Shown: positions 69-32,868 of the stretch, piece by piece
Layout: the number at the start of each line of letters is the position of its first letter
Position numbering within the stretch: position 1 is the stretch's first letter
Assembly (NCBI GenBank): GCA_018238625.1
Contig: JABCSY010000008.1
Span: 1-64,000, forward strand
DNA from: Promethearchaeota archaeon
GTDB lineage: Archaea; Asgardarchaeota; Lokiarchaeia; Sigyniarchaeales; SOKP01
Direction of reading: 5' to 3'
DNA length: 64,000 nt
The notes under the pieces: generated by a model
What the model was told of the DNA's origin: nothing
Databases searched by the model: none
What the model saw: only the letters and a program-made list of their open reading frames with translations
Made by a program: the position numbers and the translations under genes

Positions 69-374
69 ATGGGTAAGACTATAACATCAAGGTTACCAGA
101 TAAAATGGTTGAAGAGATAGAAAGAATTGCAAAGTTAGAGAATCTTGATAGGTCTAGTGTCGTGAGAAGGCTATTAAATAAGGCAATTCCCGAATGGAAA
201 CTAGAGTATGCTTTAAAATTATATCAACATAAAGAAATTTCTTTAGGAAAAGCAGCGGAATTAAGTTCTCTATCTATATGGGAAATGTTAGAAAAATTGT
301 CACAAAATAGTATTCCTCTTAATTATGACCTTGAAGAATTAGAAAGTGATTTGGAAAAGGTTAAAGAATTATGA
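69..374 (+). CDS. RHH / UPF0175-like antitoxin
   Basis: A 101-aa DNA-binding antitoxin candidate. Residues 1-45 (start MGKTITSRLPDKMVEEIERI, then SSVVRRLLNKAI) read as a ribbon-helix-helix domain, and residues 48-85 (LYQHKEISLGKAAELSSLSIWEML) match the UPF0175 family helix block that includes a second helix-turn-helix-like segment. The C-terminus is acidic and probably wraps the toxin. Its stop overlaps the start of the next gene by 4 bases (ATGA), so the two are translated together. By family knowledge the complex would repress its own promoter. The call as antitoxin rests on the neighbour and the fold pattern, not on proof of toxicity. Confidence 0.75.
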   Translation: MGKTITSRLPDKMVEEIERIAKLENLDRSSVVRRLLNKAIPEWKLEYALKLYQHKEISLGKAAELSSLSIWEMLEKLSQNSIPLNYDLEELESDLEKVKEL

Positions 375-871
375 CACAATATTCAATCATTTCAAATGCA
401 ACTCCTTTAATTGCATTCATTAAAAAAAATGAACTATCCATATTAAAAACCCTTTTTAAAGAAATAATTATTCCTAAAGCTGTTTATGATGAGATTTTAA
501 ATACACCTAGAACTTTAAATAAAGAAGGAGAGATTTTAAAGAAAGAAATAAAAAACAAATGGATTCGTATTAGAGAAATTACTAAACTAAAATTTTCTGA
601 ATTAAATCTTGGAAGAGGAGAAACCGAAGCACTTAATTTATGTATAGAATCCAATAACCCATTATTACTTATTGATGAAAAAAAAGCAAGGAATATCGCT
701 AAATCTTTAAAGATAGATGTATTAGGAACTATAGGGATATTATTACTCGTTAATAAAAGAGGGCTAAAAAATGAACAAGAAATATTAGAAAATTTAGATC
801 TTTTAATTAAAAAGGGGTTTTATTTGTCAAGCGAAGTAATTTTAGGTTTTTTAAATAAAATTAGGAAATGA
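371..871 (+). CDS. DUF3368 PIN-like toxin
   Basis: A 166-aa protein of the DUF3368 family, a branch of the PIN-domain RNase fold that is usually paired with UPF0175 or RHH antitoxins. Visible hallmarks are ISNATPLIAFIKKNEL at the N-terminus (the first acidic Asp of classical PIN is Asn here, as is common in DUF3368), the YDEIL segment, the LGRGETEAL helix with its conserved Glu, LLIDEKKARNIAKSL with an acidic pair, and VLGTIGILLLVNKRGL. Full length for the family. It overlaps the antitoxin by 4 bases. Predicted to cleave RNA when freed from the antitoxin; substrate unknown. Confidence 0.8.
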   Translation: MTQYSIISNATPLIAFIKKNELSILKTLFKEIIIPKAVYDEILNTPRTLNKEGEILKKEIKNKWIRIREITKLKFSELNLGRGETEALNLCIESNNPLLLIDEKKARNIAKSLKIDVLGTIGILLLVNKRGLKNEQEILENLDLLIKKGFYLSSEVILGFLNKIRK

Positions 872-3257: not shown

Positions 3258-3458
3258 ATGCTAATCAGCTTCCCGAACATGGGTCCGAACTGGGTGGCTT
3301 TTAAAACCTTATTCACGAGTCTTGATTTAGATGTGGTTGTTCCAGATCCAACTAATCGAGAAGCTATTAAGATTCGAATAGAATCCTTCACTGAAATTAT
3401 TAAGCGCAAGAAGAGAATGCAAGCTGGAAAAAAGAAAGCGAAAAGAAGCGTGCAATAA
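3258..3458 (+). pseudogene. Chimeric mini-ORF: COG3581 start joined to a COG3580/DUF2229 tail
   Basis: A 66-codon frame. Residues 1-39 match the first 39 residues of the COG3581-type protein at 11750 almost exactly (SFPNMGPNWVAFKTLFTSL, PDPTNREAIKI). Residues 40-55 (RIESFTEIIKRKKRMQ) instead match the extreme C-terminus of the DUF2229 half of the gene that follows (RVESFVEMIRRKKYK). All cluster cysteines and the whole core are missing, so it cannot be a working enzyme. The simplest reading is one large in-frame deletion that ran from the first gene of a duplicated operon into the last gene. Whether the 66-aa peptide is still made is unknown. Confidence 0.75.
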
Positions 3459-3493
3459 TCGTTTCGTACAATAATCCCAACCCTGTGTTTAAC

Positions 3494-5911
3494 ATGAGCG
3501 AAGAAAAACTAGCAATACATAAAAGAAAAGTAGAAGCGATCTCTGAAATGGTTAGAAATGCGTACGATAACGCGAAGCCGGGGGAATATTTCTCTCTAAA
3601 AAAGGCAAGCGTTTCCCACATGGCTCCACAGCCGGATAATCCGACCTATAGTGACAAGCCGATAGACGTGAGGTCACTTACAGACATTATTGAGATAAAC
3701 ACGGATACAAGGACGTGTATTGCAGAAGCAGGGATTACTTTTGTTAGGCTTGCAACAGAAACCTTAAAGTATGGGCTCGTACCGCAATGTGTTTCCGAGC
3801 TCAAGGGAATCACGATAGGCGGGGTAGTAGCAGGATGTTCAGTTGAATCCATGTCTTTCAAGTATGGGGGATTTTTCGATTCCTGTGAAGAAATAGAGAT
3901 TGTGACAGGAACAGGTGACATAATGTTATGCACGAAAAGTGATAACCATGAAATATTCGAGATGCTGCACGGGAGTTTCGGCACGATTGCAATCATCACG
4001 CTCCTGAAGTTCAAGCTCGTTCCAGCAAAAGAGTGCGTCCGCATCGATTACATCCGTTACGATACTTTTAGTGAATACATGGAAGCTATCAAGCAACACT
4101 ACGAAAAGCAGGATATTGAAATGATGGACGGGCTTATCTTCTCCGAGAATATGAACGTACTCTGCGTTGCCAGCTTCGTTGATGAGGAGGAAGCTCCTTA
4201 CAAGAGTGAATATTTCTACGATATTTATTACAAAAGTGCGATGAAAAAAAAGCGAGACTTCCTCTCCACCATAGATTATTTTTTCAGGTATGATGCAGAT
4301 TGCCACTGGTCGATACGGAATGTTGCTGGAGGAATTTTTGAGAATAAAGTAGTCCGGTGGTTAGTAGGGCCCTTTATACTTGGATCGACAAATATTCTTA
4401 AGATCAGCGAACGATTGCCATTTTTAACTAAGAAGGGGGGAGAACCGGACGTGATTATTGATGTCTTCATACCAATCACTCACGCGGAAGAGTTTTTCAA
4501 TTGGTACCTGGAGTTATTTGATTACTTCCCGGTTTGGATCGTCCCTTACCGCATGCAAAAAAACAAACTAGATGGGTACAAGTTCTACCCGTGGCTCAAT
4601 CAAGACATGATCGCTCCCATCGAGGATGAACTATTCATAGATTTTGCCATCTACGGGTTCGAGCAAAAAAGAAAGGGATTTAACTTCTATAAAGCGCTAG
4701 AAGAAAAGGTTCATGAGCTCAGGGGAATGAAAACCCTGATAACTCACAATTTCTACGAGGAAGACTTGTTCTGGAAGGTATATAACAAAAAATTTTACGA
4801 TAAAGTGAAAGAACGAACGGATCCCAAGAACCTATTTCGAAACTTGTACGAAAAGACGAATTATAAAAATCAGAAAAAGACTGAAAAGACGAAAAGACTG
4901 AAGGTAGGTATACCACGTTCCCTGTATTTCTACAAGTATTTTCCATTATGGGAAGGAATGCTTACAAGTCTTGGTTGCGAAGTTATTGTGAGTCCAGAAA
5001 CAAACAAAGAAATTCTTACCAACGGATCTAATCAATCTGCAACCGATTTATGCATTCCAGTCAAGATTCATTATGGTCACGTGAATTATTTATCGAGAAA
5101 TCACCCCGATCTAGATTTTATATTTGTTCCAAGACTCATTAGTAAAAGTAATGATCATTATTTTTGTCCGAAATTCCTGATCCTTCCAGATGTCACTCAA
5201 CACTCAGCAGTTTCTAATATTCCCGTTATTGAATGGATTTTTAATGCCAGGGAACATTCAATGATGAAATCAGCAATAGATTTTGGAAAAACATTAGATA
5301 AATCAAAAGAAGAATCAAAACTGGCGTATGAGAATGGATATAAAAAACTTGAAGAATTCCATGAGTTGATTGAGGATGGAATTCTTGTTCCTGATGCATT
5401 TTACAAAATGTATCCTTTTGAAAAATATCCAAATTATAAGTTTAAGAAAAGATTTCGACCTAAACTTAACAAAGATTATGAAAATTATCCACTTTCATTA
5501 ATGGTTCTTGGTCATCCATACAATACTTATGAATCAATTATTAATCATGGATTAATGGATATTCTCAAATCCAATTTTGTTGATGTTGTAACTGTTGAAA
5601 ATGCTCCAAAGGAAATCTTCTCAAGAAGAGTTGAAATTGATGATAATTTTTGCAATTTCTGGGATAATGAAGATGAATTGATGCAATTATCTGATTATGT
5701 TATACATAATGAAGAGATTGATGGGGGTATTTTCTTGATTTCTTTTGCATGTGGTCCTGATTCTTTAATTCAAGAATTGGTAATGCAGGATTTTGACATG
5801 AAAGATAAGCCTTATATTAATCTCACATTAGATGAACACACTGGAGAATCTCAAATAACTACAAGAGTAGAATCTTTTGTCGAAATGATAAGGAGGAAGA
5901 AATACAAATGA
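3494..5911 (+). CDS. DHCR24-like FAD reductase fused to DUF2229 (COG3580) cluster protein
   Basis: An 805-aa fusion. Residues 1-455 follow the whole length of Delta24-sterol reductase (DHCR24, a PCMH-type FAD enzyme): ITIGGVVAGCSVESMSFKYG is the FAD-binding loop, then LHGSFGTIAIITLLKFKLVPAK, FENKVVRWLVGPFI, YFPVWIVPYR and the terminal EEDLFWKVYNKKFYDKVKER. Residues 467-805 are DUF2229: KRLKVGIPRSLYFYKYFPLW, LCIPVKIHYGHVNYL, IFVPRL, FCPKFLILPD, ISFACGPDS, with cysteines suited to an iron-sulfur cluster. The first half is visibly richer in G+C than the second, with the change near the joint (about 4840-4980), so the first half was probably acquired. The ATG at 3494 is chosen; a GTG at 3485 adds three residues. 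The stop overlaps the activase start by 4 bases. Substrate unknown; a C=C bond of a lipid or acyl group is an inference. Confidence 0.85.
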   Translation: MSEEKLAIHKRKVEAISEMVRNAYDNAKPGEYFSLKKASVSHMAPQPDNPTYSDKPIDVRSLTDIIEINTDTRTCIAEAGITFVRLATETLKYGLVPQCVSELKGITIGGVVAGCSVESMSFKYGGFFDSCEEIEIVTGTGDIMLCTKSDNHEIFEMLHGSFGTIAIITLLKFKLVPAKECVRIDYIRYDTFSEYMEAIKQHYEKQDIEMMDGLIFSENMNVLCVASFVDEEEAPYKSEYFYDIYYKSAMKKKRDFLSTIDYFFRYDADCHWSIRNVAGGIFENKVVRWLVGPFILGSTNILKISERLPFLTKKGGEPDVIIDVFIPITHAEEFFNWYLELFDYFPVWIVPYRMQKNKLDGYKFYPWLNQDMIAPIEDELFIDFAIYGFEQKRKGFNFYKALEEKVHELRGMKTLITHNFYEEDLFWKVYNKKFYDKVKERTDPKNLFRNLYEKTNYKNQKKTEKTKRLKVGIPRSLYFYKYFPLWEGMLTSLGCEVIVSPETNKEILTNGSNQSATDLCIPVKIHYGHVNYLSRNHPDLDFIFVPRLISKSNDHYFCPKFLILPDVTQHSAVSNIPVIEWIFNAREHSMMKSAIDFGKTLDKSKEESKLAYENGYKKLEEFHELIEDGILVPDAFYKMYPFEKYPNYKFKKRFRPKLNKDYENYPLSLMVLGHPYNTYESIINHGLMDILKSNFVDVVTVENAPKEIFSRRVEIDDNFCNFWDNEDELMQLSDYVIHNEEIDGGIFLISFACGPDSLIQELVMQDFDMKDKPYINLTLDEHTGESQITTRVESFVEMIRRKKYK

Positions 5912-6939
5912 ATGAACCAGAATTTATCAAAAATATTCTTTCAGATGATGTGGATGACAAGTTATATCTAGGAATCGATGTCGGAAGTGTCTCCACGAAA
6001 TGTGCAATAATTAATGAGAGAAATGAATTATTGTATGCTACCTGGACCAGAAATGATGGTTCTCCCATTGTTTCTACACAAGAAAATCTAAAATACATGG
6101 AAGAAGTCCTTCCCGATAACATCGAAAAAAGTATTTGTGGTGTTGGGACAACAGGTTCTGCCAGGTATTTAATAAAAGCTCTTATCGGTGCAGATATAGC
6201 AAAACCTGAAATAATTGCTCATGCAATTGGAGCTTCAACTTATACCCCTGATGTGAGAACAATTCTTGAAATCGGGGGACAGGACAGCAAAGTTATATTG
6301 ATGAAAAATGGCATCGTAACAGATTTTAACATGAACAGTGTTTGTGCTGCCGGAACTGGTTCTTTTCTAGATCACCAAGCAGTTCGGATCAAGGTTCCAA
6401 TTGAAGAATTTGGGGATTATGCTCTTCGGGCAGAAGAGGAGGTTTCAATTGCAGGACGATGCACAGTTTTTGCCGAATCTGATATGATCAGTAAACAACA
6501 AGAAGGATATTCTAAAGAATCAATTATCAAGGGATTGTGTAAAGCTCTTGTTAGAAACTACTTGAATAATGTTTGCAAGGGAAAAAAAATGTATCCTCCC
6601 TTTGTATTCCAGGGAGGAGTTGCAGCAAATTCCGGAATAAAAAATGCTTTTGAAGAAGAATTGGGGTATGAAGTCATTGTTCATGAGAACTATTACGTGA
6701 TGGGAGCATTTGGTTCAGCCATTTTGGCAAAGGAACATGTAAATGGACAGATATCTTCTTTTCATGGCCTAAAAGTTAGTGAAATGAACTTGGCTCCAGG
6801 TTCATTTGTCTGTCCTGATTGTGCAAATAGATGTACAGTTAAATACCTTGTCAGGGAAGAAGATAAAAGTAGAGTAACTGGAAGAGAAAAGGATGATGCG
6901 ATATTTGCACGATGGAATAGTAGGTGCGGTAAATGGTAA
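5908..6939 (+). CDS. BadF/HgdC-type ATPase, activator of 2-hydroxyacyl-CoA dehydratase-like reductases
   Basis: A 343-aa ASKHA-fold ATPase. GIDVGSVSTK (residues 22-31) is the first phosphate loop, EIGGQDSKVI the second, and Cys146 (NSVCAAGTGSF) and Cys185 (SIAGRCTVFAESDM) are the ligands through which two subunits hold one 4Fe-4S cluster. ATP hydrolysis drives a low-potential electron onto the partner cluster protein. The C-terminus adds a four-cysteine tail (Cys302, 305, 309, 340) that in the giant bacterial activases lies between the ATPase and DUF2229 parts. It overlaps the genes on both sides (4 and 7 bases), so the three form a tight operon. It is paralogous to 12959-13984. Confidence 0.92.
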   Translation: MNEPEFIKNILSDDVDDKLYLGIDVGSVSTKCAIINERNELLYATWTRNDGSPIVSTQENLKYMEEVLPDNIEKSICGVGTTGSARYLIKALIGADIAKPEIIAHAIGASTYTPDVRTILEIGGQDSKVILMKNGIVTDFNMNSVCAAGTGSFLDHQAVRIKVPIEEFGDYALRAEEEVSIAGRCTVFAESDMISKQQEGYSKESIIKGLCKALVRNYLNNVCKGKKMYPPFVFQGGVAANSGIKNAFEEELGYEVIVHENYYVMGAFGSAILAKEHVNGQISSFHGLKVSEMNLAPGSFVCPDCANRCTVKYLVREEDKSRVTGREKDDAIFARWNSRCGKW

Positions 6940-8267
6940 ATGTTAGAGTTTCATTTTCACGAATGGGTTGGAGCTATATTTTTTTCAAAGGTTTATTCCA
7001 TGATCTTCCTGGTATTGAAGTTGTTGAACCCCCTCTAGTAAACACTGAAATCGTTAGTGAAGGAGTCAAAAATTCTCCTGAATTCGTTTGTTTTCCATTT
7101 AAAGTCATTCTTGGTGAAATGATAAACCTGTATCGTAATTATGATGTTAAAGATTTTGCGATGATTGCTGACTACGGCCCTTGTCGAGCAGGAATGTATG
7201 GTGTTGTCCAGAAAAGAATCCTGAAAAGCATGGGATTCAAGGATGTTAGAATGTTTTATCTACGTCAAGATGATTTCAGAAATCTTGAATGGCTAAGGGT
7301 ATTTCGTGATTTAGAAAAAAGAACAGGAAGAAAATTTGAGGACTATAAAGTTTTAAGAAACACACTCTTGTTCATGGTCAAAGCATACTATGTTGAAAGA
7401 ATAACCCATATTGAAGGACTTGTTAGATGTCGAGAAAAAAACAAAGCAATGACTACCAAAGTAGTTCATACTTTGATGAATTTACTTGATAACGAAAATA
7501 ATTTGATGAAATTATCTAATTTTGATAGAACGATAGATGAAAAATTTCGCAAGATTCCTATTGACAAGGAAATGGAACCTTTGAGGGTTTGTTATACTGG
7601 GGAAATCCAAGTCATGTTGGAGAAATGGGTTAATTATGATCTGATGGGAGAATTAGGCGTCATGGGTATCGAGGTTCACAAGCAGTATGATGTCTTTGAT
7701 TGGGTCATGTACAAACTTGACGCCAGCAAACGAAGAAGACGGCTTAAACATAGTGCAAGAAAGTATATTCCAATGGATATAGGAGGCGAGGCATTATGGA
7801 ACATGGGAAGTTATCTTGAGTCTCAAGAAAAAGGCTTCAACGGCTATGTACACATTTTTCCCTTCACCTGCATGCCTGAAATATCCCTCATGGGAATGTT
7901 AGAAGCTGAGAAAAACATGGACAAGTTTTACATGCCCCACATTCATTTTAGTCTTGATGGAAGTTCTGGTTTTGAAGGACTTAGAACAAGAATCGAAGCA
8001 TTTCATGATTTAATGGTTGGCAACAAGAAAAATAATCCCTTGTTTAGAGATGCCAAGTATGTGGTCCCGGATGAGATAAAAAATATATATTTTAAGCCGA
8101 AATCCAATTTTGAATATTTCGTGTCTAGTATTGAAACCCCAATGTCAAAGGTTTTAACAATGCTGAATCCATCAAAGAAATTAGATGTAGGATTCGCCGT
8201 TAAGAATGGACTCGAGTTTTTTTCAAGAAATTCGTTTTTTGGTATCGGATCTCTTTTTAACCTTTGA
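6933..8267 (+). CDS. COG3581-type HgdB-like iron-sulfur protein
   Basis: A 444-aa protein related to the cluster-bearing subunits of 2-hydroxyacyl-CoA dehydratases and to double-cubane-cluster proteins. Conserved points are SRMGWSYIFFKGLF at the start, EFVCFPFK (Cys53), DYGPCRAGMYGVVQKRIL (Cys84), PMDIGGEALWNMGSYL and FPFTCMPE (a third cysteine). It ends with an extra 50-residue hydrophobic-basic tail (EYFVSSIETPMSKVLTML onward) that the paralogue at 11750 lacks. It would receive electrons from the ATPase encoded just upstream, with which it overlaps by 7 bases. The substrate is not evident; family members also reduce small molecules. Confidence 0.88.
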   Translation: MVNVRVSFSRMGWSYIFFKGLFHDLPGIEVVEPPLVNTEIVSEGVKNSPEFVCFPFKVILGEMINLYRNYDVKDFAMIADYGPCRAGMYGVVQKRILKSMGFKDVRMFYLRQDDFRNLEWLRVFRDLEKRTGRKFEDYKVLRNTLLFMVKAYYVERITHIEGLVRCREKNKAMTTKVVHTLMNLLDNENNLMKLSNFDRTIDEKFRKIPIDKEMEPLRVCYTGEIQVMLEKWVNYDLMGELGVMGIEVHKQYDVFDWVMYKLDASKRRRRLKHSARKYIPMDIGGEALWNMGSYLESQEKGFNGYVHIFPFTCMPEISLMGMLEAEKNMDKFYMPHIHFSLDGSSGFEGLRTRIEAFHDLMVGNKKNNPLFRDAKYVVPDEIKNIYFKPKSNFEYFVSSIETPMSKVLTMLNPSKKLDVGFAVKNGLEFFSRNSFFGIGSLFNL

Positions 8268-8397
8268 GAAGCTATTTTGTTATGAAAGAAATATCAACAG
8301 ACTAAGAATGAACCTAAAATTAAAACCTTACTTTCAATTAACTTTATTTTTTAAGCAAATTATAATAAATAATAATATTGACTTTCTAGTTAGAATT

Positions 8398-11749: not shown

Positions 11750-12940
11750 ATGATAATTTCTTTTCCCAATATGGGCCCCAACTGGGTAGCATTTAAGACG
11801 CTATTTACAAGCCTTGGTCTAGATGTAGTTATTCCAGATCCAACGAATCGAGAAGCGATTAAGATTGGGGTAAAACACTCCCCCGAATTTGTGTGTTTCC
11901 CGTTTAAAGCGACTATTGGAGATTTCGTGAATGCTATAAAGAAGGGAGCAGATACGCTAGTCATGGCAATAGATTGTGGACCATGTAGATTTGGCTTTTA
12001 CGCGAGCGTCCAAGAACGTATTTTGAAGGATATGGGATATAAAAATATTACGGTTATCCCCCTCGACCAAGCAGATTTACTTGATTTTAAATGGGTCAAA
12101 ACTCTTCAAGAAGTTAGTGGTCGAAAGGACTTGTTTATGTATTCAAAGTTCGTTAAGGCTGTAATTCTTTTCCTAAAGAAAGCTAAGCTATTAAACGATA
12201 TTCAAACTGCCGAAGGTATCTTCCGAGCTTACGAGCGCAATCAGGGAGATACGACGGAATTGATTAGAAACTTATTGAATAAGCTTGATCAAGCTAATAC
12301 GCTCCCAGAATTGAGAAAATTCAAAAGCGTTATTAAGCAAGATTTTAGCAATTTAGATACAGATAAGACCCGAACGCCTCTACGGGTTGGTGTTTCGGGA
12401 GAGATTCACATTAATTTGGAACCATACGTAAATTTAGATATCCGTAGAAAGCTGGGTGAGATGAACATTGAAGTACACCAGAGCTTGAGCTTATACGATT
12501 GGGTTGTCCATAAATTCCATTTAAATTATCACAGAAAGTGGTTAGAACACCTTTCGCAACCATATTTACCGATGGACATTGGCGGAGAGGCGATGTGGGT
12601 GCTAGGTGAATATATAAATAAAGCTCAAGCGGGGTTTGATGGCTTCGTTCATCAATATCCGTTCCTCTGTATGCCAGAAGTGACGGCACGGACGATTTTA
12701 ACTAATAAACTTAAGGGAATTTACGATCTTCCCATCATTTACTTCTCTTTCGACGAGCAGAGCGGATTGGCGGGCTTCAGGACTAGGCTAGAAGCATTCT
12801 CTGACCTAATGTATGGTCGTAGGAATAAAGAAATTAAAAATAACGCCAAATTCGTAGCAAATGGTAATAAAAAGATTTATCCGCATTATGGCGGTTTATT
12901 TTATAATGAATGCGCTCAATTAATTCAAAATTCGGTTTAA
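11750..12940 (+). CDS. COG3581-type HgdB-like iron-sulfur protein (second set)
   Basis: A 396-aa paralogue of 6933-8267. Conserved points are SFPNMGPNWVAFKTLF, EFVCFPFK (Cys49), IDCGPCRFGFYASVQERIL (Cys76, Cys79), PMDIGGEAMWVLGEYI and YPFLCMPE. It has one cysteine more than its paralogue before the GPCR motif and lacks the long C-terminal tail. The protein should carry an iron-sulfur cluster and take electrons from the ATPase encoded 18 bases downstream. No DUF2229/COG3580 gene follows in this set; the only local DUF2229 is in the fusion at 3494, so the two sets may share it. The duplicated leader upstream implies separate control from region 3.4-8.3 kb. Confidence 0.88.
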   Translation: MIISFPNMGPNWVAFKTLFTSLGLDVVIPDPTNREAIKIGVKHSPEFVCFPFKATIGDFVNAIKKGADTLVMAIDCGPCRFGFYASVQERILKDMGYKNITVIPLDQADLLDFKWVKTLQEVSGRKDLFMYSKFVKAVILFLKKAKLLNDIQTAEGIFRAYERNQGDTTELIRNLLNKLDQANTLPELRKFKSVIKQDFSNLDTDKTRTPLRVGVSGEIHINLEPYVNLDIRRKLGEMNIEVHQSLSLYDWVVHKFHLNYHRKWLEHLSQPYLPMDIGGEAMWVLGEYINKAQAGFDGFVHQYPFLCMPEVTARTILTNKLKGIYDLPIIYFSFDEQSGLAGFRTRLEAFSDLMYGRRNKEIKNNAKFVANGNKKIYPHYGGLFYNECAQLIQNSV

Positions 12941-12958
12941 TGATAAAGGTGAGATTAT

Positions 12959-13984
12959 ATGGAAGAAGTTACTGAAAAAGTTACTAAAGTAGGAAAAAAA
13001 AAAGATGCTTTCCTTGGTATTGACATAGGAAGCGTGAGTTGCAAATTTGTTTTAATGGATACAGATGGAAATTTACTTACTAGCGTGTTTTTACGAAATA
13101 GAGGTTCTCCCATCGACTCAGCCAAGGCAGGAATGGCCGAGTTACGCGATAACATAGAAGAAAGCGAAAATTTAGGCGATTACGAGATTCGTTGCTGTGG
13201 TACCACAGGTTCGGCACGGTATCTAACAAAAGCAATCGTTGGTGCCGATCTCGCTAAAACCGAGATAATAGCCCACGCAGTTGCAGCGCAAACTATCTAT
13301 CCCGATGTAAAAACGATATTAGAAATTGGCGGTCAAGATTCGAAAATTATCATTCTACGGGACGGAATAATCGTAGATTTTGCGATGAATTCTGTATGCG
13401 CTGCTGGAACGGGTTCATTTCTCGATCACCAAGCAGCGAGGCTTGGGACAGTTATAGAAGATTTTGGCTCTTACGCTATAAAATCAAAAAATCCTGTAAG
13501 TATTGCGGGAAGATGTACTGTTTTCGCAGAGTCTGATATGATTCACAAGCAAAACGCGGGTTACTCTAAAGAGGATATTATTGCAGGTTTATGCGATTCA
13601 CTTGTGCGCAACTATATGAACAACGTAGGTAAGGGCAAAGACTTAGAAGAACCCATTGTATTCCAAGGTGGCGTTTCTTACAACGAAGGGATCATTGAAG
13701 CATTTGAAAGACATTTAGGTTGCAAAGTAATTGTTCCTGAATATAATGTCCTAATGGGGGCTTTAGGAATGGCAATTTTGGTTAGAGATTTCTATTTAGA
13801 GCACGAACATCAAACCGTATTTCGAGGACTCGAAGTATCAGATATTGAGTTCACGACATCAGCGTTTAACTGTGGAGATTGCCCGAATAACTGCGAAATA
13901 GTCCAAGTAAAGATGCCTCAAGAAGGAAATAAGATTATAGCACGCTGGGGCTCTCGTTGTGGTAAATGGGATCAAGTAGATTAA
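12959..13984 (+). CDS. BadF/HgdC-type ATPase (second set)
   Basis: A 341-aa activase closely similar to 5908-6939. GIDIGSVSCK (residues 20-29) is the phosphate loop, EIGGQDSKII the second, and Cys147 and Cys186 (VCAAGTGSF, AGRCTVFAESDM) are the 4Fe-4S ligands at the dimer interface. The C-terminal cysteine tail (FNCGDCPNNCEI and SRCGKW) is kept. The start ATG has AAAGGTGAG a few bases upstream. It would couple ATP hydrolysis to reduction of the neighbouring COG3581 protein. An alternative role is activation of a dehydratase encoded elsewhere. Confidence 0.92.
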   Translation: MEEVTEKVTKVGKKKDAFLGIDIGSVSCKFVLMDTDGNLLTSVFLRNRGSPIDSAKAGMAELRDNIEESENLGDYEIRCCGTTGSARYLTKAIVGADLAKTEIIAHAVAAQTIYPDVKTILEIGGQDSKIIILRDGIIVDFAMNSVCAAGTGSFLDHQAARLGTVIEDFGSYAIKSKNPVSIAGRCTVFAESDMIHKQNAGYSKEDIIAGLCDSLVRNYMNNVGKGKDLEEPIVFQGGVSYNEGIIEAFERHLGCKVIVPEYNVLMGALGMAILVRDFYLEHEHQTVFRGLEVSDIEFTTSAFNCGDCPNNCEIVQVKMPQEGNKIIARWGSRCGKWDQVD

Positions 13985-14146
13985 TTTCGAATTATATAAT
14001 CTAATCTTTTGATAACATACTTTTCAAACTATTATTGTATTTATAACCTTTAAATTTAATAAACGAATATTTGAATAAAAATAAGAAAAAACATATCTAG
14101 TAGAGTTATTAAAATATTGTCCAATTTTTAATAAAAGAGAAGTAAA

Positions 14147-14341
14147 ATGACAGAATTTTTTAAGCAATTAAAGGACTTGGGCGAGGGTTTTCTCGAGTCC
14201 TTGCAACATAATACAAAACTATCGACAATATTTGATATTTATTTAGAAAAAGTAATCCCTTCATTTGTTTCCGAAAAAGAGTTAAAGGAATATTACGAGA
14301 GACGGATGGAGGAAGTTAATAACTTCATAGACAAACTATAA
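14147..14341 (+). CDS. Small helical protein, unknown
   Basis: A 64-aa protein, predicted all-helical with two amphipathic helices (EFFKQLKDLGEGFLESLQH and SEKELKEYYERRMEEVNNFI). No signal peptide, membrane segment or metal site. It lies 14 bases before the acyltransferase gene and is probably cotranscribed with it. It shares a general phenylalanine-leucine helical pattern with the small protein on the other side of that gene, but they are not clearly homologous. I do not recognise a family. Confidence 0.6.
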   Translation: MTEFFKQLKDLGEGFLESLQHNTKLSTIFDIYLEKVIPSFVSEKELKEYYERRMEEVNNFIDKL

Positions 14342-14355
14342 GCGAGGGAAAAAAG

Positions 14356-15045
14356 ATGGTTGAAACATCTTCCGAGGAGACGGAAACGAAAGGAAAAGAT
14401 AAGGTGCTTAGTAAGAATCTTATGGAAGACATTTTTTACGCAGTTACCAAAGGTTTAGGAAACTTTGGTTTAACGGCATTCGCAGACTTACAAATTGAAG
14501 GGCGTGAAAACGTACCTATTATAGGAAGAGCGATTTTAACTACGATTAGCCACAACGCGTTAAGAGATATGGCGATTATAAGTCAAGTTACTGGACGAAG
14601 AGTTCACTTTATGGTCCATCATAAACTGATGAAGAATCAAATGTACGGGCCCGTTCTTAAGTCGTTAGGCATGTTTCGCAGTACCCTCGATAAGGACGAT
14701 ACCATACCTATAGATAAAGTGTTCCACTATCTTAACGAAGTTGGGGATCTTGTAGCCATGACGCCGGAATCAAAACTTACACCCGAAATTCAGGTGAAAG
14801 CAATGGCGGGAATCATTAAATTTGCAGTTGCTGGAAAAGCACCTATAATCCCCATAGCAATATACACGGAAAACGCGAAAATTTTAGGTATGTTTAAAAC
14901 ACAGGGGTTAAGAGTAAAAATCGGGACCCCACTTAAGGTAGAGAAACGATTGTCTCGACCAAAATATCGAGATGAGAGATACGAACTCGCTGAGGATATT
15001 TTAAGAATTATTGATTCCCTTAAACCAGAACCCGATATTGAATAA
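14356..15045 (+). CDS. PlsC-like (LPLAT superfamily) acyltransferase
   Basis: A 229-aa protein of the lysophospholipid acyltransferase superfamily. Motif I is ISHNALRDMAI (His-X4-Asp, the catalytic pair), and the region VHFMVHHKLMKNQMYGPVLKSLG with MFRS aligns with motif II. Motif III, normally F-P-E-G, reads MTPESKL, so the glycine is replaced. The N-terminal 20 residues are charged, with no clear membrane anchor. It should transfer an acyl chain to a hydroxyl group of a lipid or other acceptor; archaeal membrane lipids are ether-linked, so the acceptor is not obvious. It lies between two small genes that may form an operon with it. Confidence 0.8.
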   Translation: MVETSSEETETKGKDKVLSKNLMEDIFYAVTKGLGNFGLTAFADLQIEGRENVPIIGRAILTTISHNALRDMAIISQVTGRRVHFMVHHKLMKNQMYGPVLKSLGMFRSTLDKDDTIPIDKVFHYLNEVGDLVAMTPESKLTPEIQVKAMAGIIKFAVAGKAPIIPIAIYTENAKILGMFKTQGLRVKIGTPLKVEKRLSRPKYRDERYELAEDILRIIDSLKPEPDIE

Positions 15046-20952: not shown

Positions 20953-21600
20953 GTGTCTAATGATAAATTTTATCAAGAAATAACTGAAGCAATCGTAAGT
21001 CTTGACAAAGAAAAAACTATTGAATTGGCTAATAAAGCAATTCAAGAAAAGATGAATCTTCTTGAAGTAATAGAGAAAGGGTTTGGCGCGGGGATCCGTA
21101 AAATAGGGGATTTATGGGACGAAGGAGAGTTTTTCCTTCCAGAACTAATGCTTGGAGGGACTATTATGCAAGAATCTATGCAACTTCTTTTTCCACACAT
21201 AGGAACAGAGAGAGATAGCATCTCAAATGGAAAAGTAGTAATTGCAACAATAGAAGGAGACATTCACTCAATAGGAAAAACGATTGTCGCTACAATGTTG
21301 AGTGCCAATGGTTTTGAAGTTTTTGATCTAGGCGCTGACATTCCAGCTGAAAAAATTATCGAAGTTGCTATTGAAAAGAATGCAGACATCATTGGAGTTT
21401 CTGCTCTATTGACTACAACTATGATCGGTCAAAAAAAGATAATAGAAATACTCGAAACTAAAGGCATCCGAGACAATTTCAAAGTGATACTTGGGGGCGC
21501 TCCAGTTTCTAACGCTTGGGTAGAAGAGTGCAAAGCAGATGGATTTGCTGGTAGCGCCGTAGAGGCTGTTAATTTAGTTAAGAACCTTTTAAAAATTTAA
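20953..21600 (+). CDS. Corrinoid protein of the MtbC/MttC type
   Basis: A 215-aa methyl carrier. Residues 1-90 form the helical cap (KGFGAGIRKIGDLWDEGEFF, LPELMLGG), and residues 95-215 the Rossmann-like B12 domain. GDIHSIGK gives the D-x-H-x-x-G signature with His105 as the lower ligand of cobalt; SALLTTTM and the GGAPVS loop hold the cofactor tail. The start is GTG at 20953. It would accept a methyl group from the MttB-type protein encoded at 22542 and hand it on. The two following genes are at 26 and 24 bases, so this is one operon. No reductive activator gene (RamA type) is in the window. Confidence 0.92.
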   Translation: MSNDKFYQEITEAIVSLDKEKTIELANKAIQEKMNLLEVIEKGFGAGIRKIGDLWDEGEFFLPELMLGGTIMQESMQLLFPHIGTERDSISNGKVVIATIEGDIHSIGKTIVATMLSANGFEVFDLGADIPAEKIIEVAIEKNADIIGVSALLTTTMIGQKKIIEILETKGIRDNFKVILGGAPVSNAWVEECKADGFAGSAVEAVNLVKNLLKI

Positions 21601-21626
21601 AGATCGCTTATTTGAGGTAAATTGCT

Positions 21627-22517
21627 GTGTTGTTCCACGATTGGTTAAAAAACGATTCGAAAATCATATTATTTGACGGAGGAATGGGATCAGAGATATT
21701 TAAGCGTGGAATCACGCCCGGAAAGCTTCCCGATACCCTCAATATCGATCGACCGGACGTAATTTTTGAGATACATAAATCTTATTACGACGCTGGCGCA
21801 GATATGTGCCAAACAAGTACTTTTGGATCCAGTTTTTTAAATTTGCAAGGCTATAAAATTGAGAGCCAAATTAAAGAGTTAACTGAGAGCGCCTTAAAAA
21901 ATATAAAAAGAGCTTGCCCTCCCAATCGATTAATTGTAGGCGATATTGGCCCGTCTGGTGTATTTAAGCCTCCAGTAGGAAAAGCAACCGTTGACCAATG
22001 GGTTTCCAGCTATGTAAAACAGGTAGGCTTTTTAGAAAAAGGAGTAGATCTCTGGCATATTGAGACTATTTCAGACATTGAAGAAATGGAAGCTGCGATA
22101 AAAGCGATAAGAGAGATTTCAAAAAAACCCATTATAAGCTCAATGACATACAAAAAAACTAAAAAAAAAAAATTTTTCACCATTATGGGCGATTCTTTAG
22201 AAAAGTGCGTGCGAAGACAAGAGGATTTAAATGTTGACGTGATTGGAGCGAATTGTACGTTAGGAAGCGATGAAATGATAGGATTAATAAAGGAATTAAA
22301 AGAGCTTACTAATAAACCCATATCAGCAAAACCTAACGCGGGTCAACCAGGAATCGATCAAAACAATAGAGCCGTTTATGCTCAACCAATAAAGGATTTC
22401 GTAAGTGATATTCACGAAATTATTCAAATAGGTGCTAAAATCGTTGGAGGGTGCTGTGGTACGTCTCCAACTACTATAAAAGAAATAAAAAAACTTATAG
22501 ATTCACTAGAGAATTAA
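21627..22517 (+). CDS. Homocysteine S-methyltransferase-family protein
   Basis: A 296-aa TIM-barrel protein of the BHMT/MetH N-terminal type. LFDGGMGSEIFKRGI opens the barrel, GADMCQTSTFG follows, and Cys210 (GANCTLGSDEM) with Cys276 and Cys277 (GGCCGTSP) provides the three thiolate zinc ligands that activate homocysteine. Between a corrinoid protein and an MttB-type methyltransferase, it most likely moves the methyl group from methyl-cobalt to homocysteine, giving methionine, rather than to coenzyme M. Another thiol acceptor is possible. The start is GTG at 21627 after TGAGGTAA. It is about the length of the catalytic domain alone. Confidence 0.9.
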   Translation: MLFHDWLKNDSKIILFDGGMGSEIFKRGITPGKLPDTLNIDRPDVIFEIHKSYYDAGADMCQTSTFGSSFLNLQGYKIESQIKELTESALKNIKRACPPNRLIVGDIGPSGVFKPPVGKATVDQWVSSYVKQVGFLEKGVDLWHIETISDIEEMEAAIKAIREISKKPIISSMTYKKTKKKKFFTIMGDSLEKCVRRQEDLNVDVIGANCTLGSDEMIGLIKELKELTNKPISAKPNAGQPGIDQNNRAVYAQPIKDFVSDIHEIIQIGAKIVGGCCGTSPTTIKEIKKLIDSLEN

Positions 22518-22541
22518 CTAAATGAGAGTGAGTATGTTAAG

Positions 22542-23978
22542 ATGGGAATATTAAGGCCAAGAATTAACGTTTTAGATGAAGATCATAAAGTAAAGATATT
22601 CAATGAGGCTAAAGATATTTTAGAAAATCTGGGAATATTTTTAGAAAATGATGACGCTAAAGAATTATTTAACAGCGAGGGAGTTAATCACGAGGGTTCT
22701 CGATACTTCATTCCTTCTGATTTAGTCGATAAATGTCTCAAATCTGTTCCAAGTGAGATCAAACTTTTTGATAGAGAGGGTAAAGAGCATATTACTCTAG
22801 CGAATGATAATGTTCATTACGATCCTGGCTCAGCAGCGATATTATTTTTGGACGAGAATACGGGGACAATTAGAAACGCGTTCGAAAAAGATTTCGTACG
22901 CTTTTCAAAGGTAGTAGAGCATTTAAAGTATATTGAAGCTCAAAGTACTGCTATAGTTTATCAAGATGTCCCCACCCAGGCACAAGATTGGCATAGGTTA
23001 TATGTCGCATTATCTAATTGTTATAAACCAGTTATTACAGGGACATTTCGAAAAGAAAGTTTTCCAATTATGAAAGAATTATTGTTAAGTTGTCGATTAT
23101 CAGAGGATGATTTAGCAAGGAAACCTTTAGCTATCTTCGATGCTTGTCCGAGTCCTCCACTAAAGTGGTCTGACTTAACATCTCAATCCCTTATCGATGC
23201 CGCCAAGAGTATGATCCCATCTGAGTTTGTGTCTATGCCGTTAGCAGGGGCTAGCGCTCCAATAAGTTTGATAGGGTGCATAACTCAACACTCTGCAGAA
23301 TGTTTAGCAGGGGTTGTAATTGGACAGCTAGCAAAAAAGGGCGCGCCTTTGATTTGGGGTGGATCGCCCGCAGTATTAGACATGAAGCAAGGTACAACTC
23401 CAATGGGGGCAATTGAAACAATGATGATTAATTTAGGGGATGTTGAAATGGGAAAATTTATGAAAATGCCCACTCATGCTTATATGAGCCTTAGTGACTC
23501 CAAAGTTCCAGACGCTCAAGCAGGATTCGAAGGGGGCATGGGAGCTCTTTTAGCGGGACTTGCTGGCATAAATATGATTTCGGGCCCTGGCATGTTAGAT
23601 TTTGAATCCACGCAAAGCATTGAAAAATTAGTAATTGATAATGAAATAGTAGGAATGGTAAAAAGACTCCTAAGAGGGGTAGAAGATCACGGTACTCCAT
23701 TTGCTTCTGAAATTTTAAAGGACTACAATGATAAAGAGGAATTACTCTCGCATCCAACAACTTTAAAGCTTTTTAGAAAGGAGCTTTTTATAGTTAGTCC
23801 GGTAATAGATCGCATGTCTCGAGACGCTTGGAAAGAGAATGGCGCTAAATCTGCACGAAAAAGAGCTAAAGAGCAAGCTTCGAAATTAATCAATAAAGGT
23901 TCACTCAAACCTATCGATGATAATTTAATCAAAGAATTAGAGATCATCACTTTAAAGAACCTAAAATCCTTAAAATAA
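22542..23978 (+). CDS. MttB-superfamily methyltransferase without pyrrolysine
   Basis: A 478-aa member of the trimethylamine methyltransferase superfamily (COG5598). The frame is continuous with no in-frame amber codon, so it belongs with the non-pyrrolysine branch, whose known members (for example MtgB) demethylate quaternary amines such as glycine betaine. Recognisable parts are VHYDPGSAAILFLDENTG, AQSTAIVYQDVPTQA, PLAGASAPISLIGCITQHSA, HAYMSLSDSKVPDAQAGFEG and ISGPGMLDFESTQSIEKL. It would methylate the corrinoid protein encoded first in the operon. The actual amine is not deducible from sequence alone. Confidence 0.92.
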   Translation: MGILRPRINVLDEDHKVKIFNEAKDILENLGIFLENDDAKELFNSEGVNHEGSRYFIPSDLVDKCLKSVPSEIKLFDREGKEHITLANDNVHYDPGSAAILFLDENTGTIRNAFEKDFVRFSKVVEHLKYIEAQSTAIVYQDVPTQAQDWHRLYVALSNCYKPVITGTFRKESFPIMKELLLSCRLSEDDLARKPLAIFDACPSPPLKWSDLTSQSLIDAAKSMIPSEFVSMPLAGASAPISLIGCITQHSAECLAGVVIGQLAKKGAPLIWGGSPAVLDMKQGTTPMGAIETMMINLGDVEMGKFMKMPTHAYMSLSDSKVPDAQAGFEGGMGALLAGLAGINMISGPGMLDFESTQSIEKLVIDNEIVGMVKRLLRGVEDHGTPFASEILKDYNDKEELLSHPTTLKLFRKELFIVSPVIDRMSRDAWKENGAKSARKRAKEQASKLINKGSLKPIDDNLIKELEIITLKNLKSLK

Positions 23979-31177: not shown

Positions 31178-31930
31178 TCATAGTCTTTGGATTAATTCTG
31201 ACATTATTTCTCCTCCATTACCTCTTAAAAAGAGATCAGCAATATTATCCATTGCGGTACGCTCTCGATTTACGAAGATTACTTTTGCTCCACTTTCTTT
31301 CGCGATAGAAGGTAAAAGGTTTGCTGGGGATATCAGTAAAGAGCTTCCTATCATCAGAAAACAATCACAAGATCTACAAGCGTTCATTGCTCTTTCTATC
31401 ACGCTTGGGCGCAATGGTTCTCCAAATAGCACTACTTTTGGTTTTATATACCCACTACATTCACAAACGGGATATTTAACGCTCTTAGTCTCAACTTCTT
31501 CAAATAGAAATTCTTTTTTACACCTAATACACTCTAATTTTTCATAAGAACCGTGTAATTCGTAAATTGGTAGATTAGTATAAGTTCCACTTCCCGCGCG
31601 TTTATGTAGTACGTCTACATTTTGAGTGATTATTGCAATCATTTTTCCTAGCTTTTCCAGCTCAACAATCGCGTAATGAATTTGATTCGGCTTCGCGTTA
31701 ACTACGATGTCGACTAATTCGTTGTGCATAGTCCAGAACTTGCTCGGATCTTCTAGAAAGTAGCGGTAGCTCGCATAAATCGAAGGGTCGTAGCGAGACC
31801 ACAAACCCCCCTCGCTTCTAAAGTCTGCGATTCCAGATTCAGTTGAAGCTCCTGCTCCCGTAAACACAACGATTTTCTCGGAATTCTTTACGATTTCAGT
31901 TGCTTTCTTTAGGCTTTCTTCATTAGACAT
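31178..31930 (-). CDS. Sir2-family NAD-dependent protein deacylase (sirtuin)
   Basis: A 250-aa sirtuin. TGAGASTESGIADFRSEGG is the NAD-binding start, ITQNVDVLHKRAGS the ribose loop, His126 in ELHGSYE the catalytic base, and Cys134, Cys137, Cys156 and Cys158 bind zinc. GSSLLISPANLLP and VNRERTAMD close the Rossmann part. The spacing of the second zinc pair is C-x-C rather than C-x-x-C, as in several archaeal and class III-like members. It removes acyl groups from lysines; in archaea Alba is a classic target, and an Alba gene lies at 57366. The PIG-L gene lies 26 bases upstream on the same strand. Confidence 0.93.
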   Translation of the reverse strand: MSNEESLKKATEIVKNSEKIVVFTGAGASTESGIADFRSEGGLWSRYDPSIYASYRYFLEDPSKFWTMHNELVDIVVNAKPNQIHYAIVELEKLGKMIAIITQNVDVLHKRAGSGTYTNLPIYELHGSYEKLECIRCKKEFLFEEVETKSVKYPVCECSGYIKPKVVLFGEPLRPSVIERAMNACRSCDCFLMIGSSLLISPANLLPSIAKESGAKVIFVNRERTAMDNIADLFLRGNGGEIMSELIQRL

Positions 31931-31956
31931 TAAATCACAATAATAAATAATCTATT

Positions 31957-32640: not shown

Positions 32641-32868
32641 TATAAACTCCAAATTAAGTTTTAAATAGTTCTTTGACTAACAATATAATTAAATTTGTAA
32701 TAAAAGTTTTTAAAATTTCAACAATAAACAAGTAAGAGAAAATAAATTTCGAGGTTAATTAAACAATATTTAAATGAGATATTGTATAAATTAACTTAAA
32801 ATTTAAACCAATTGATAATTAAAAGATTTAGGATTTTAAATTAAAACTTAAATATGTAGTGAATAATA

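What the first reader, a model, noticed from the sequence alone, without database searches (positions are those of the whole stretch)
3494..5911. DHCR24-like sterol-reductase domain fused to a DUF2229 low-potential reductase subunit
The N-terminal 455 residues align by eye over full length with the Delta24-sterol reductase family, including the FAD loop (TIGGVVAGCSVESMSFKYG), a region like DHCR24's FRYLFGWMVPP (VVRWLVGPFI), the V-W-I-V-P-Y block and the EEDLFWKVYN end. The rest is a full DUF2229 domain (KVGIPRSLYFYKYFPLW, CIPVKIHYGH). I know of no described protein with both. An ATP-fed iron-sulfur partner tied to a FAD C=C reductase suggests reduction of an unactivated double bond, for example an isoprenoid side chain or polyprenyl lipid. 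That role is inference.
Basis: partly seen in the sequence, partly recalled or inferred. Interest (0 to 1): 0.88.

Follow-up and report, generated by a model that had tools for sequence, protein, structure and literature searches.

The report
Flavin reductase fused to lipid-ester reductase
Some Lokiarchaea carry a real, repeatedly observed fusion of a flavin enzyme of a kind that saturates lipid double bonds with one subunit of an ATP-driven machine related to bacterial enzymes that turn ester lipids into ether lipids, which gives a testable route to fatty-acid-based ether lipids in archaea close to the origin of eukaryotes.

Summary
The fusion is real. The 805-aa frame (window 3494-5911) joins a PCMH-type FAD reductase domain to a DUF2229/HGD-D subunit. 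One frame crosses the joint in 15 of 25 Lokiarchaeal genomes holding the gene; in the other ten, contig ends cut it. It heads a three-gene cassette (fusion, activase, second reductase subunit), a ~4.8 kb unit recently exchanged between genera.

Working reading: a split PlsA/Ger-like lipid-ester reductase with its own C=C reductase (ester to vinyl ether to alkyl ether). Support: PlsA-type cysteines; the FAD-free paralogue lies near PlsC and/or HAD genes in 24 of 26 loci; stand-alone bacterial FAD relatives lie next to PlsA-like genes in 2 of 21 loci (two phyla); all 13 Myxococcota genomes with the FAD family have DUF2229 (136 of 282 overall); full-length homology to BfaA-type loci.

Against: no substrate data; in Spirochaetota co-occurrence shows nothing (2 of 3; base 157 of 247); Sigynarchaeota has the FAD protein without DUF2229; Ger makes alkyl ethers alone. 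Kinship to DHCR24 itself was not testable here.

The parts
3494..4876 (+). FAD-binding PCMH-type lipid C=C reductase-like domain (residues 1-461 of the fusion); FAD loop ITIGGVVAGCSVESMSFKYGG at 3809-3871, family motif YDADCHW at 4289-4309, FPVWIVPYR at 4526-4552
   Evidence: Pfam FAD_binding_4; alignment A3 of 14 relatives; fold DprE1 Z 26 over 356 residues; coordinates
4850..4891 (+). flexible linker / joint between the two halves (about residues 453-466)
   Evidence: pLDDT below 50 at residues 459-467; joint spanned by one frame in 15 of 25 Lokiarchaeal genomes, contig ends before it in the other ten
4901..5908 (+). Red1: DUF2229 (4901-5599) plus HGD-D C-terminal part (5651-5890) with three conserved cysteines C520, C558, C753 (codons at 5051, 5165, 5750), presumed [4Fe-4S] ligands
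   Evidence: Pfam; cysteines invariant in 10 of 10 aligned Red1 sequences incl. three PlsA-like proteins; positions
5908..6939 (+). Activase (BcrAD_BadFG / COG1924-like ATPase), C146 and C185 in the motifs CAAGTG and GRCTVF, further Cys near the C-terminus; overlaps the fusion's stop by 4 bases
   Evidence: Pfam BcrAD_BadFG E 2.7e-47; NCBIfam TIGR00241 above cut-off; positions; COG label recalled
6933..8267 (+). Red2: second DUF2229-like (COG3581-like) subunit with C53, C84, C313
   Evidence: weak DUF2229 match (E 3.8e-6, 27.1 bits, below the cut-off 29.4); cysteines conserved in 7 of 8 aligned Red2 sequences; COG label recalled
3458..8288 (+). Discrete ~4.8 kb cassette; both edges agree within about 35 bases in five other genomes
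   Evidence: blastn edges in G005, G150, G026, G024, G161, left edge also in L110 and G032, edge alignments; exceptions: G010, G034, G017, G015 share more DNA to the left, G006 ends earlier on the right
3297..3458 (+). Scar ORF: N-terminal COG3581-like piece joined to a COG3580-like C-terminal tail, directly upstream of the cassette
   Evidence: translation; similarity to the 11750 gene
11750..12940 (+). Paralogous Red2 (d3581B) of the FAD-free lipid operon
   Evidence: Pfam DUF2229 E 2.4e-11; operon context in relatives
12959..13984 (+). Paralogous activase (actB) of the FAD-free lipid operon
   Evidence: Pfam BcrAD_BadFG E 4.7e-48
14356..15045 (+). PlsC-type acyltransferase of the FAD-free lipid operon
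   Evidence: Pfam Acyltransferase E 1.4e-9

Best explanation
The cassette encodes a split PlsA/Ger-like glycerolipid ester reductase with a built-in C=C reductase. The activase hydrolyses ATP and passes low-potential electrons one at a time to the [4Fe-4S] sites of Red1 (C-terminal half of the fusion) and Red2. By analogy with PlsA, these reduce the ester carbonyl of an acyl-glycerolipid and dehydrate it to a vinyl (alk-1-enyl) ether. The N-terminal FAD domain, tethered by a flexible linker, then hydrogenates the vinyl-ether double bond to a saturated alkyl ether, using FAD reduced by NAD(P)H or by an unknown donor, as BfaA is thought to do for a 10-methylene acyl chain. Shown: domains, intact fusion, conserved cysteines, gene order, recent horizontal spread, and the bacterial genomic linkage of the FAD family to PlsA-like genes. 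Inferred: that the complex acts on a lipid ester (about 0.7), and that the FAD domain saturates the vinyl ether rather than another double bond (about 0.5-0.6 given the first).
For: 1) Rosetta-stone fusion to Red1 under purifying selection on both halves; the activase follows wherever the contig goes on past the fusion, and Red2 after it (in G156 the Red2 frame lacks its first 62 residues). 2) Three Red1 cysteines invariant in 10 of 10, and three Red2 cysteines in 7 of 8, aligned proteins including PlsA-like ones. 3) The FAD-free paralogous three-gene set has PlsC-type acyltransferase and/or HAD phosphatase genes with at most two genes between in 24 of 26 Lokiarchaeal loci (5 of 6; 19 of 20; Pfam of examples); in G006 a two-gene PlsA+PlsR-like layout lies between that operon and the cassette, and in G030 between it and the contig end where the cassette's first 89 codons begin. 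4) Stand-alone FAD relatives next to PlsA-like genes in two bacterial phyla: G644, same strand, 55 bp apart; G772, convergent; Pfam of both. That is 2 of 21 non-Asgard loci, both flanks visible in 15 of the 21. 5) Myxococcota: 13 of 13 FAD-family genomes have DUF2229 against 136 of 282 overall, P 5.6e-5; without the two genomes known beforehand 11 of 11, P 2.4e-4. 6) FAD family homologous over full length to BfaA-type loci. [quoted passage not shown] this cassette has one activase plus a C=C-reductase-type domain.
Against: No biochemical or lipid data. Ger of Desulfatibacillum alkenivorans makes alkyl ethers alone in E. coli (PMC11150832, passages), so a FAD partner is not generally needed; the PlsA-like neighbours in G644 and G772 have two activation domains, the layout linked to alkyl ethers without help. 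Sigynarchaeota G045 has the FAD protein but no DUF2229; so do G227, G231, G232 and G727. In Spirochaetota co-occurrence is 2 of 3 against a base rate of 157 of 247, no signal. The Myxococcota test is not corrected for relatedness. The PlsA-like subtype beside the cassette in G006 also occurs in genomes where the FAD gene was not found. The cassette may sit in the lipid operon because of sequence homology with it (homologous recombination), not function; in G026, G034, G024, G150 and G161 it lies elsewhere. A three-gene set also exists away from lipid genes (Monoglobus).
Confidence: 0.42

Rival explanations
1. One reading: the complex hydrogenates an isoprenoid or polyprenyl double bond, using ATP-energised electrons through Red1 to FAD.
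For: FAD half belongs to a superfamily acting on lipid substrates (closest solved fold DprE1, a decaprenyl-phosphoryl-sugar enzyme; BfaA-type loci); archaea have many unsaturated isoprenoids (general knowledge).
Against: Geranylgeranyl-reductase superfamily genes above cut-off in 11 of 11 genomes (broad model, above cut-off in 6 of 14 controls too); neighbours of the paralogous complex include acyltransferases and phosphatases, though I did not search them for prenyltransferases; BfaA works in E. coli with only its methyltransferase (PMC5660069, passages), so such a flavin reductase needs no ATP-driven partner.
Confidence: 0.15
2. The FAD domain is an electron-entry module: it takes electrons from NAD(P)H or another donor and feeds the activase/Red1 clusters; it reduces no substrate itself.
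For: Fused directly to the cluster-bearing subunit; FAD domains of this fold occur in electron-transfer complexes such as lactate dehydrogenase LctD (weak hit E 0.001).
Against: PlsA and Ger work in E. coli without such a module (passages); full-length homology, including the substrate half, to BfaA-type reductases; stand-alone relatives in genomes without DUF2229.
Confidence: 0.15
3. The FAD half reduces another C=C of the same lipid, for instance a methylene or chain double bond as BfaA does, and the Red complex is a separate ester reductase; the fusion co-localises two lipid-modifying steps.
For: BfaA-type homology; Sigynarchaeota G045 and three small genomes (G227, G231, G232) keep the FAD gene without DUF2229.
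Against: No relative of the Variovorax SAM methyltransferase (blastp E <= 1e-5) in the FAD loci of 15 bacterial genomes.
Confidence: 0.18
4. The Red/activase part is not a lipid enzyme at all but a 2-hydroxyacyl-CoA dehydratase or aryl-CoA reductase relative, and the recent FAD fusion is a chimera spread by transfer with little joint function.
For: Very different base composition of the halves (GC3 49 vs 23.5); cassette spread by recent transfer; Monoglobus three-gene set next to lysine-pathway genes.
Against: dN/dS 0.06-0.20 over both halves at larger distances; bacterial adjacency and Myxococcota co-occurrence independent of the fusion; PlsC/HAD context of the paralogue.
Confidence: 0.1

Closest known systems
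PlsA / PlsA-PlsR plasmalogen synthase (Clostridium perfringens, Enterococcus; PMC9702350 and PMC12838417, passages seen)
   Same: Activase (BcrAD_BadFG), Red1 (DUF2229) and Red2 parts, with cysteines shared with aligned PlsA-like proteins
   Different: Three separate genes, one activase, low sequence identity, and an extra N-terminal FAD domain on Red1; no proven PlsA sequence was at hand, only PlsA-like relatives
Ger, glycerol ester reductase (Thermotoga, Desulfatibacillum; PMC13274423, PMC11150832, passages seen)
   Same: PlsA-like family; product class (saturated alkyl ether) is the one predicted here
   Different: Ger has two activation domains in one chain and makes alkyl ethers without a flavin partner
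BfaA, FAD-binding oxidoreductase for 10-methyl stearate (Mycobacterium chlorophenolicum, PMC5660069, passages seen)
   Same: Full-length homology to BfaA-type loci, 28-30% identity; thought to reduce an unactivated C=C in an acyl lipid
   Different: Stand-alone, paired with a SAM methyltransferase; no iron-sulfur partner
DHCR24 sterol Delta24-reductase (recalled)
   Different: No squalene cyclase above cut-off in 9 genomes; no DHCR24 sequence found here to compare with
FAD-free Lokiarchaeal operon HAD - PlsC - COG3580 - COG3581 - COG1924 - PlsC (seen here; end of it at window 11750-15045, whole in L083, L077)
   Same: Paralogous Red1 (about 44% identity), Red2 and activase
   Different: No FAD domain; linked to acyltransferases; no sign of recent transfer in the pairs measured

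Membership tests
BfaA/DHCR24-type PCMH-FAD C=C reductases | FAD_binding_4 domain above curated cut-off | tested here: met
   49.9 bits vs 26.4
BfaA/DHCR24-type PCMH-FAD C=C reductases | homology over the whole chain, beyond the FAD domain | tested here: met
   three BfaA-type sequences align over 414-474 columns, E <= 3e-53, and score 250-295 bits with the family profile, against 32-35 bits for three GlcD-type proteins of the own genome
BfaA/DHCR24-type PCMH-FAD C=C reductases | reduction of a lipid C=C with NAD(P)H | not tested
   needs an enzyme assay
DHCR24 (sterol reductase) | a sterol pathway in the organism (squalene cyclase) | tested here: not met
   no TIGR01787 match over cut-off in 9 of 9 genomes; sub-threshold matches in 4
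DHCR24 (sterol reductase) | direct sequence kinship to DHCR24 | not testable with these tools
   no DHCR24 entry seen among PDB or viral hits listed; resemblance is recalled
PlsA/Ger | BcrAD_BadFG activation domain(s) | tested here: met
   separate activase gene 5908-6939, E 2.7e-47; one, not two
PlsA/Ger | Red1 with DUF2229 and three conserved Cys | tested here: met
PlsA/Ger | Red2 with three conserved Cys | tested here: met
   conserved in 7 of 8 aligned; the Paraclostridium row lacks them in this alignment
PlsA/Ger | one chain, or PlsA plus PlsR (activation domains fused to Red1) | tested here: not met
   activase is a separate gene and Red1 is fused to the FAD domain instead
PlsA/Ger | conversion of glycerolipid ester to vinyl or alkyl ether | not tested
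   needs expression and lipid analysis
Geranylgeranyl reductase | TIGR02032 match | tested here: not met
   not among the NCBIfam hits of the fusion at E <= 0.01; such genes lie elsewhere in the genome
2-hydroxyacyl-CoA dehydratase (HgdABC) | HGD-D family over the subunit | tested here: inconclusive
   only the last ~80 residues match HGD-D, 30.0 vs 28.4 bits

The most novel reading that the evidence does not exclude
The FAD family is the missing vinyl-ether (alkenyl-lipid) reductase. In bacteria it works beside PlsA; in Lokiarchaea it is welded to Red1. Lokiarchaea then make fatty-acid-derived saturated alkyl-ether glycerolipids by reducing ester lipids, i.e. a hybrid lipid between the bacterial and archaeal types, through a PlsC-HAD-ester-reductase operon plus a transferable FAD-linked cassette.
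Probability: 0.33. Interest if true: 0.92.

Novelty: new variant of a known kind. Interest (0 to 1): 0.72.

Why it matters
Asgard archaea are the closest archaeal relatives of eukaryotes, and how ester and fatty-acid lipids arose on that line is an open question; their genomes carry plsC and plsY, while lipid analysis of the cultured Lokiarchaeon showed archaeal lipids only, by a method that might have overlooked ester lipids (PMC13400652, PMC6431249, passages). A recurrent PlsC-HAD-ester-reductase operon gives those acyltransferases a possible product. The FAD-linked cassette also offers a candidate for the enzyme, called unknown in 2026 (PMC13274423), that turns vinyl ethers into alkyl ethers, with bacterial stand-alone versions that can be tested in E. 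coli.

Tried and rejected
Frameshift or assembly artefact at the joint: rejected, although contigs often break in this gene, ten of 25 times before the joint.

Sterol reductase: not supported for these organisms, no squalene cyclase over cut-off in 9 genomes. Replacement of geranylgeranyl reductase: not needed, TIGR02032 genes over cut-off in 11 of 11.

High conservation as a sign of constraint alone: rejected. Fourfold-site distance between the window and G156 (another genus) is 0.02-0.16 for the three cassette segments that could be compared (DUF2229 half, activase, Red2) but 1.1-1.8 for three neighbouring operon genes, so the cassette moved recently; distances to G024 and G161 are larger (0.24-0.47). 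No terminal repeats or transposase were evident by reading the aligned edges (not a systematic search), so how it moves is unknown.

That one PlsA subtype tracks the FAD gene: not supported. The subtype 36-38% identical to the G006 protein is also in G370, G533, G702 and G667, where the FAD family was not found at the cut-offs used. I compared identities only; no PlsA tree was built. Spirochaetota co-occurrence gave no signal. Neighbours of the FAD relatives: apart from PlsA-like, three other two-genome clusters, which I did not identify; my ORF caller missed the FAD gene itself in three of the 21 loci.

Facing of FAD pocket and cluster cysteines: not testable; the model of the fusion has pTM 0.57 and its coordinates are not shown. 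DHCR24 did not appear among listed structure hits; that absence proves nothing. My Paraclostridium Red2 row is partly misaligned. In the FAD tree one ORF next to a GlcD-type gene, with a very long branch, was left in; it falls inside the Loki clade and should be ignored. Six of 50 loci gave no PlsA-like frame to my simple ORF caller and are missing (L198, L200, L201, L202, L206, L209). The lipid-operon count of 26 leaves out the loci, which were annotated before the PlsC and HAD references existed (taken from one of them).
Full report
WHAT IS THERE. The frame 3494-5911 (or from GTG 3485) is open and encodes 805 aa. Pfam finds FAD_binding_4 at 56-146 (E 3.5e-13), DUF2229 at 470-702 (E 6.6e-45) and HGD-D at 720-799 (E 5.2e-7). 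Directly behind it, overlapping by 4 and 7 bases, lie an activase gene (5908-6939, BcrAD_BadFG E 2.7e-47) and a second DUF2229-like gene (6933-8267, E 3.8e-6, below the Pfam cut-off). I call the parts FAD domain, Red1, Act and Red2. COG numbers used below are recalled labels.

IS THE FUSION REAL. A search of 58 genomes, the own one included, found the full-length fusion in seven (G000, and G010, G005, G006, G026, G034, G024 at 89-98% identity) and pieces cut by contig ends in more. Over 227 genomes of the phylum at E <= 1e-10, 25 genomes, all of one family, carry the FAD domain at 88% identity or more; besides these there are G045 (64%), a partial match in G103 (29%), and general FAD_binding_4 proteins. 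Counting, an open frame crosses the joint in 15 of the 25; in the other ten the contig ends before it. A contig filed under Ignavibacteriales (L110) has the fusion too and is probably misbinned (inference). Record titles name the holders Candidatus Lokiarchaeota/Lokiarchaeia (14 of the 23 loci). dN/dS is 0.06-0.12 for the FAD half and 0.10-0.20 for Red1 in pairs whose FAD-half dS exceeds 0.4: both halves are kept by selection. Some very close pairs have higher ratios (up to 0.97 for Red1 in G005/G150), as is usual for recent divergence (inference).

A MOVING CASSETTE. blastn shows nearly the same two edges (window 3454-3488 and 8277-8288) around fusion-Act-Red2 in G005, G150, G026, G024 and G161, and the same left edge in L110 and G032, while the flanking DNA differs; G010, G034, G017 and G015 share more to the left, and G006 ends at 8234. 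Fourfold-site distance from the window to G156 (another genus) is 0.03 for Red1, 0.02 for Act and 0.16 for Red2, but 1.2, 1.8 and 1.1 for three neighbouring genes of the paralogous operon; to G150 it is 0.01-0.12 for the four cassette segments, to G024 and G161 0.24-0.47. So the unit has spread recently between genera. The left edge in several genomes holds the tail of another COG3580-like gene, and the right edge in G005, G150 and G027 the start of another COG3581-like gene, so the source probably had a longer operon (inference). The FAD half is richer in GC than Red1 in all seven fusions measured (window GC3 49 vs 23.5); the Sigynarchaeota stand-alone version is 53.8% GC: the FAD half looks like the later arrival (inference).

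THE PARALOGOUS LIPID OPERON. Without the FAD domain, the same three-part set forms an operon with glycerolipid genes. In G014 (L083) and G028 (L077) the order is HAD phosphatase, double PlsC acyltransferase, COG3580, COG3581, activase, PlsC (Pfam of the G010 copies and of the window's PlsC). I examined 26 loci with a stand-alone COG3580 gene, picked by their match to the DUF2229 half and not by neighbours: PlsC-type and/or HAD genes lie with at most two genes between in 5 of 6 (G040 not) and 19 of 20 (G043 not). The window holds the end of this operon (11750-15045), with the cassette upstream; its COG3580 gene is on another contig (L038). In G006 a 977-aa protein (two activase domains plus DUF2229) and a 469-aa partner (24% identical to the C-terminal part of a 1389-aa PlsA-like protein of G040), the PlsA plus PlsR layout, lie between this operon and the cassette; in G030 a 985-aa and a 474-aa gene lie between it and the contig end, where the first 89 codons of the cassette start. 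In G034 the cassette is the only DUF2229 system found (genome 92% complete).

THE FAD FAMILY OUTSIDE LOKIARCHAEA. A pattern scan of the GTDB species genomes found 23 loci (it needs exact short peptides, so it is not exhaustive): 14 Lokiarchaea, L110, Sigynarchaeota (stand-alone), and seven stand-alone relatives at 40-46% in Peregrinibacteria, Spirochaetaceae, a Cyanobacteria-type bin, Deltaproteobacteria, a Nanoarchaeota bin, an unnamed bacterium and Minicystis rosea. In Spirochaetota G644 the FAD gene (438 aa) is followed 55 bp later, same strand, by a 1443-aa PlsA-like gene. In G772 (phylum of the Cyanobacteria-type bin) a 1479-aa PlsA-like gene and the FAD gene are convergent neighbours. 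Both PlsA-like proteins have two BcrAD_BadFG stretches and DUF2229. That is 2 of 21 non-Asgard loci; both flanks are visible (600 bp or more) in 15 of the 21. Assuming 3 such genes per 4,000, 0.03 are expected and P(>=2) is about 5e-4 (a rough estimate). In Myxococcota (phylum of M. rosea) 13 of 282 genomes have the FAD family (E <= 1e-60) and 136 have DUF2229 (E <= 1e-15); all 13 are among the 136, P = 5.6e-5. Two of the 13 (G230, G233) were known; without them 11 of 11, P = 2.4e-4. Neither figure is corrected for relatedness. In Spirochaetota it is 2 of 3 against 157 of 247, no signal. Of the seven genomes behind the stand-alone hits, four have DUF2229 and three small ones do not; Sigynarchaeota G045 has none. 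Over all 20 non-Asgard FAD-family genomes searched for DUF2229, 16 have it (cut-offs differ).

WHAT THE FAD DOMAIN IS. The separate model (pLDDT 83, pTM 0.86) has the PCMH/VAO fold, nearest DprE1 (Z 26, 356 residues, 3.2 A), then lactone and cytokinin dehydrogenases. By sequence the nearest named type I could test is BfaA: loci with a FAD oxidoreductase beside a class I SAM methyltransferase (Variovorax, Tsukamurella) plus a Nonomuraea relative whose record has no annotation there, 28-30% identical over 414-474 columns; the family profile scores these 250-295 bits against 32-35 for three GlcD-type proteins. BfaA is reported as necessary for 10-methyl stearate and is thought to reduce the 10-methylene intermediate (PMC5660069, passages). 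That those three loci are BfaA is my reading of gene order and similarity.

HOW IT MOST LIKELY WORKS. PlsA (with or without PlsR) turns an acyl ester into a vinyl ether, and Ger, its relative with two activation domains, gives alkyl ethers (PMC9702350, PMC12838417, PMC13274423; passages). Red1 of the cassette, of the FAD-free sets and of PlsA-like proteins share three cysteines in 10 of 10, and Red2 three in 7 of 8. So I read the cassette as an ATP-driven ester reductase with one activase, whose vinyl-ether product is saturated by the tethered FAD domain. [quoted passage not shown] the FAD family fits that gap. The substrate, the electron donor of FAD and the step order are inferred.

AGAINST AND OPEN. 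Ger alone makes alkyl ethers in E. coli (PMC11150832, passages). The FAD gene exists without DUF2229 in Sigynarchaeota, G727 and three small genomes. The location of the cassette inside the lipid operon may reflect homologous recombination. The PlsA subtype is not tied to the FAD gene. Identity between the cassette and PlsA-like proteins is low (22.5% for Red1 against the G006 protein), and a three-gene set occurs beside non-lipid genes (Monoglobus). Isoprenoid reduction remains possible, but genes of the geranylgeranyl-reductase superfamily are present.

NOVELTY. In the open-access library the word DUF2229 occurs in one paper, on hydrocarbon degradation (listing); DHCR24 does not occur together with 2-hydroxyacyl-CoA dehydratase or activase (three papers, none with DHCR24); and among the papers listed (titles and abstract openings; one search lists 15 of 186 and one search lists 20 of 158) none announces PlsA or Ger in Asgard archaea. 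In PMC11868695 and PMC6431249 the passages seen do not either. Subscription papers, including Jackson 2021 (not held) and Sahonero-Canavesi 2022 (known only through citing papers), were not read. I rate it a new variant of a known kind.

Noticed in passing
window 11750-15045; L083 3347-10455; L077 3110-10342; L136-L155: FAD-free operon HAD phosphatase - PlsC(-PlsC) - COG3580 - COG3581 - activase - PlsC recurs in several Lokiarchaeal families: a candidate lipid ester-to-ether operon in its own right.
   Followed up: partly
L027 10975-15335; L037 6019-10404: Two-gene PlsA+PlsR-like layout (977+469 aa; 985+474 aa) between the lipid operon and the cassette (in L037, the contig end where the cassette begins).
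   Followed up: partly
window 69-871; L026 7900-8775: UPF0175 + DUF3368 gene pair (toxin-antitoxin-like, my reading); a 96% identical copy lies on the other side of the cassette in G005, so the locus has been reshuffled.
   Followed up: no
window 20953-23978: B12-binding corrinoid protein, homocysteine S-methyltransferase family and MttB-family methyltransferase in a row: a methylamine- or betaine-type methyl transfer set.
   Followed up: no
window 31178-32652: Sirtuin (SIR2) next to a PIG-L family deacetylase, same strand.
   Followed up: no
L025 12533-15658 and 16451-17671: 1041-aa ORF with a LAGLIDADG domain beside the cassette in G010; the downstream COG3581 gene is split into two frames there.
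   Followed up: no
L069 8730-9674: A FAD-family relative in G103 (26-29% identity) seems truncated or broken at its N-terminal half.
   Followed up: partly
L110 3693-7701: The cassette at about 93% identity on a contig filed under Ignavibacteriales, probably a binning error.
   Followed up: no
L134 4019-7236: A three-gene COG3580/COG3581/activase set in Monoglobus next to lysine-pathway genes and away from lipid genes; function unknown.
   Followed up: no
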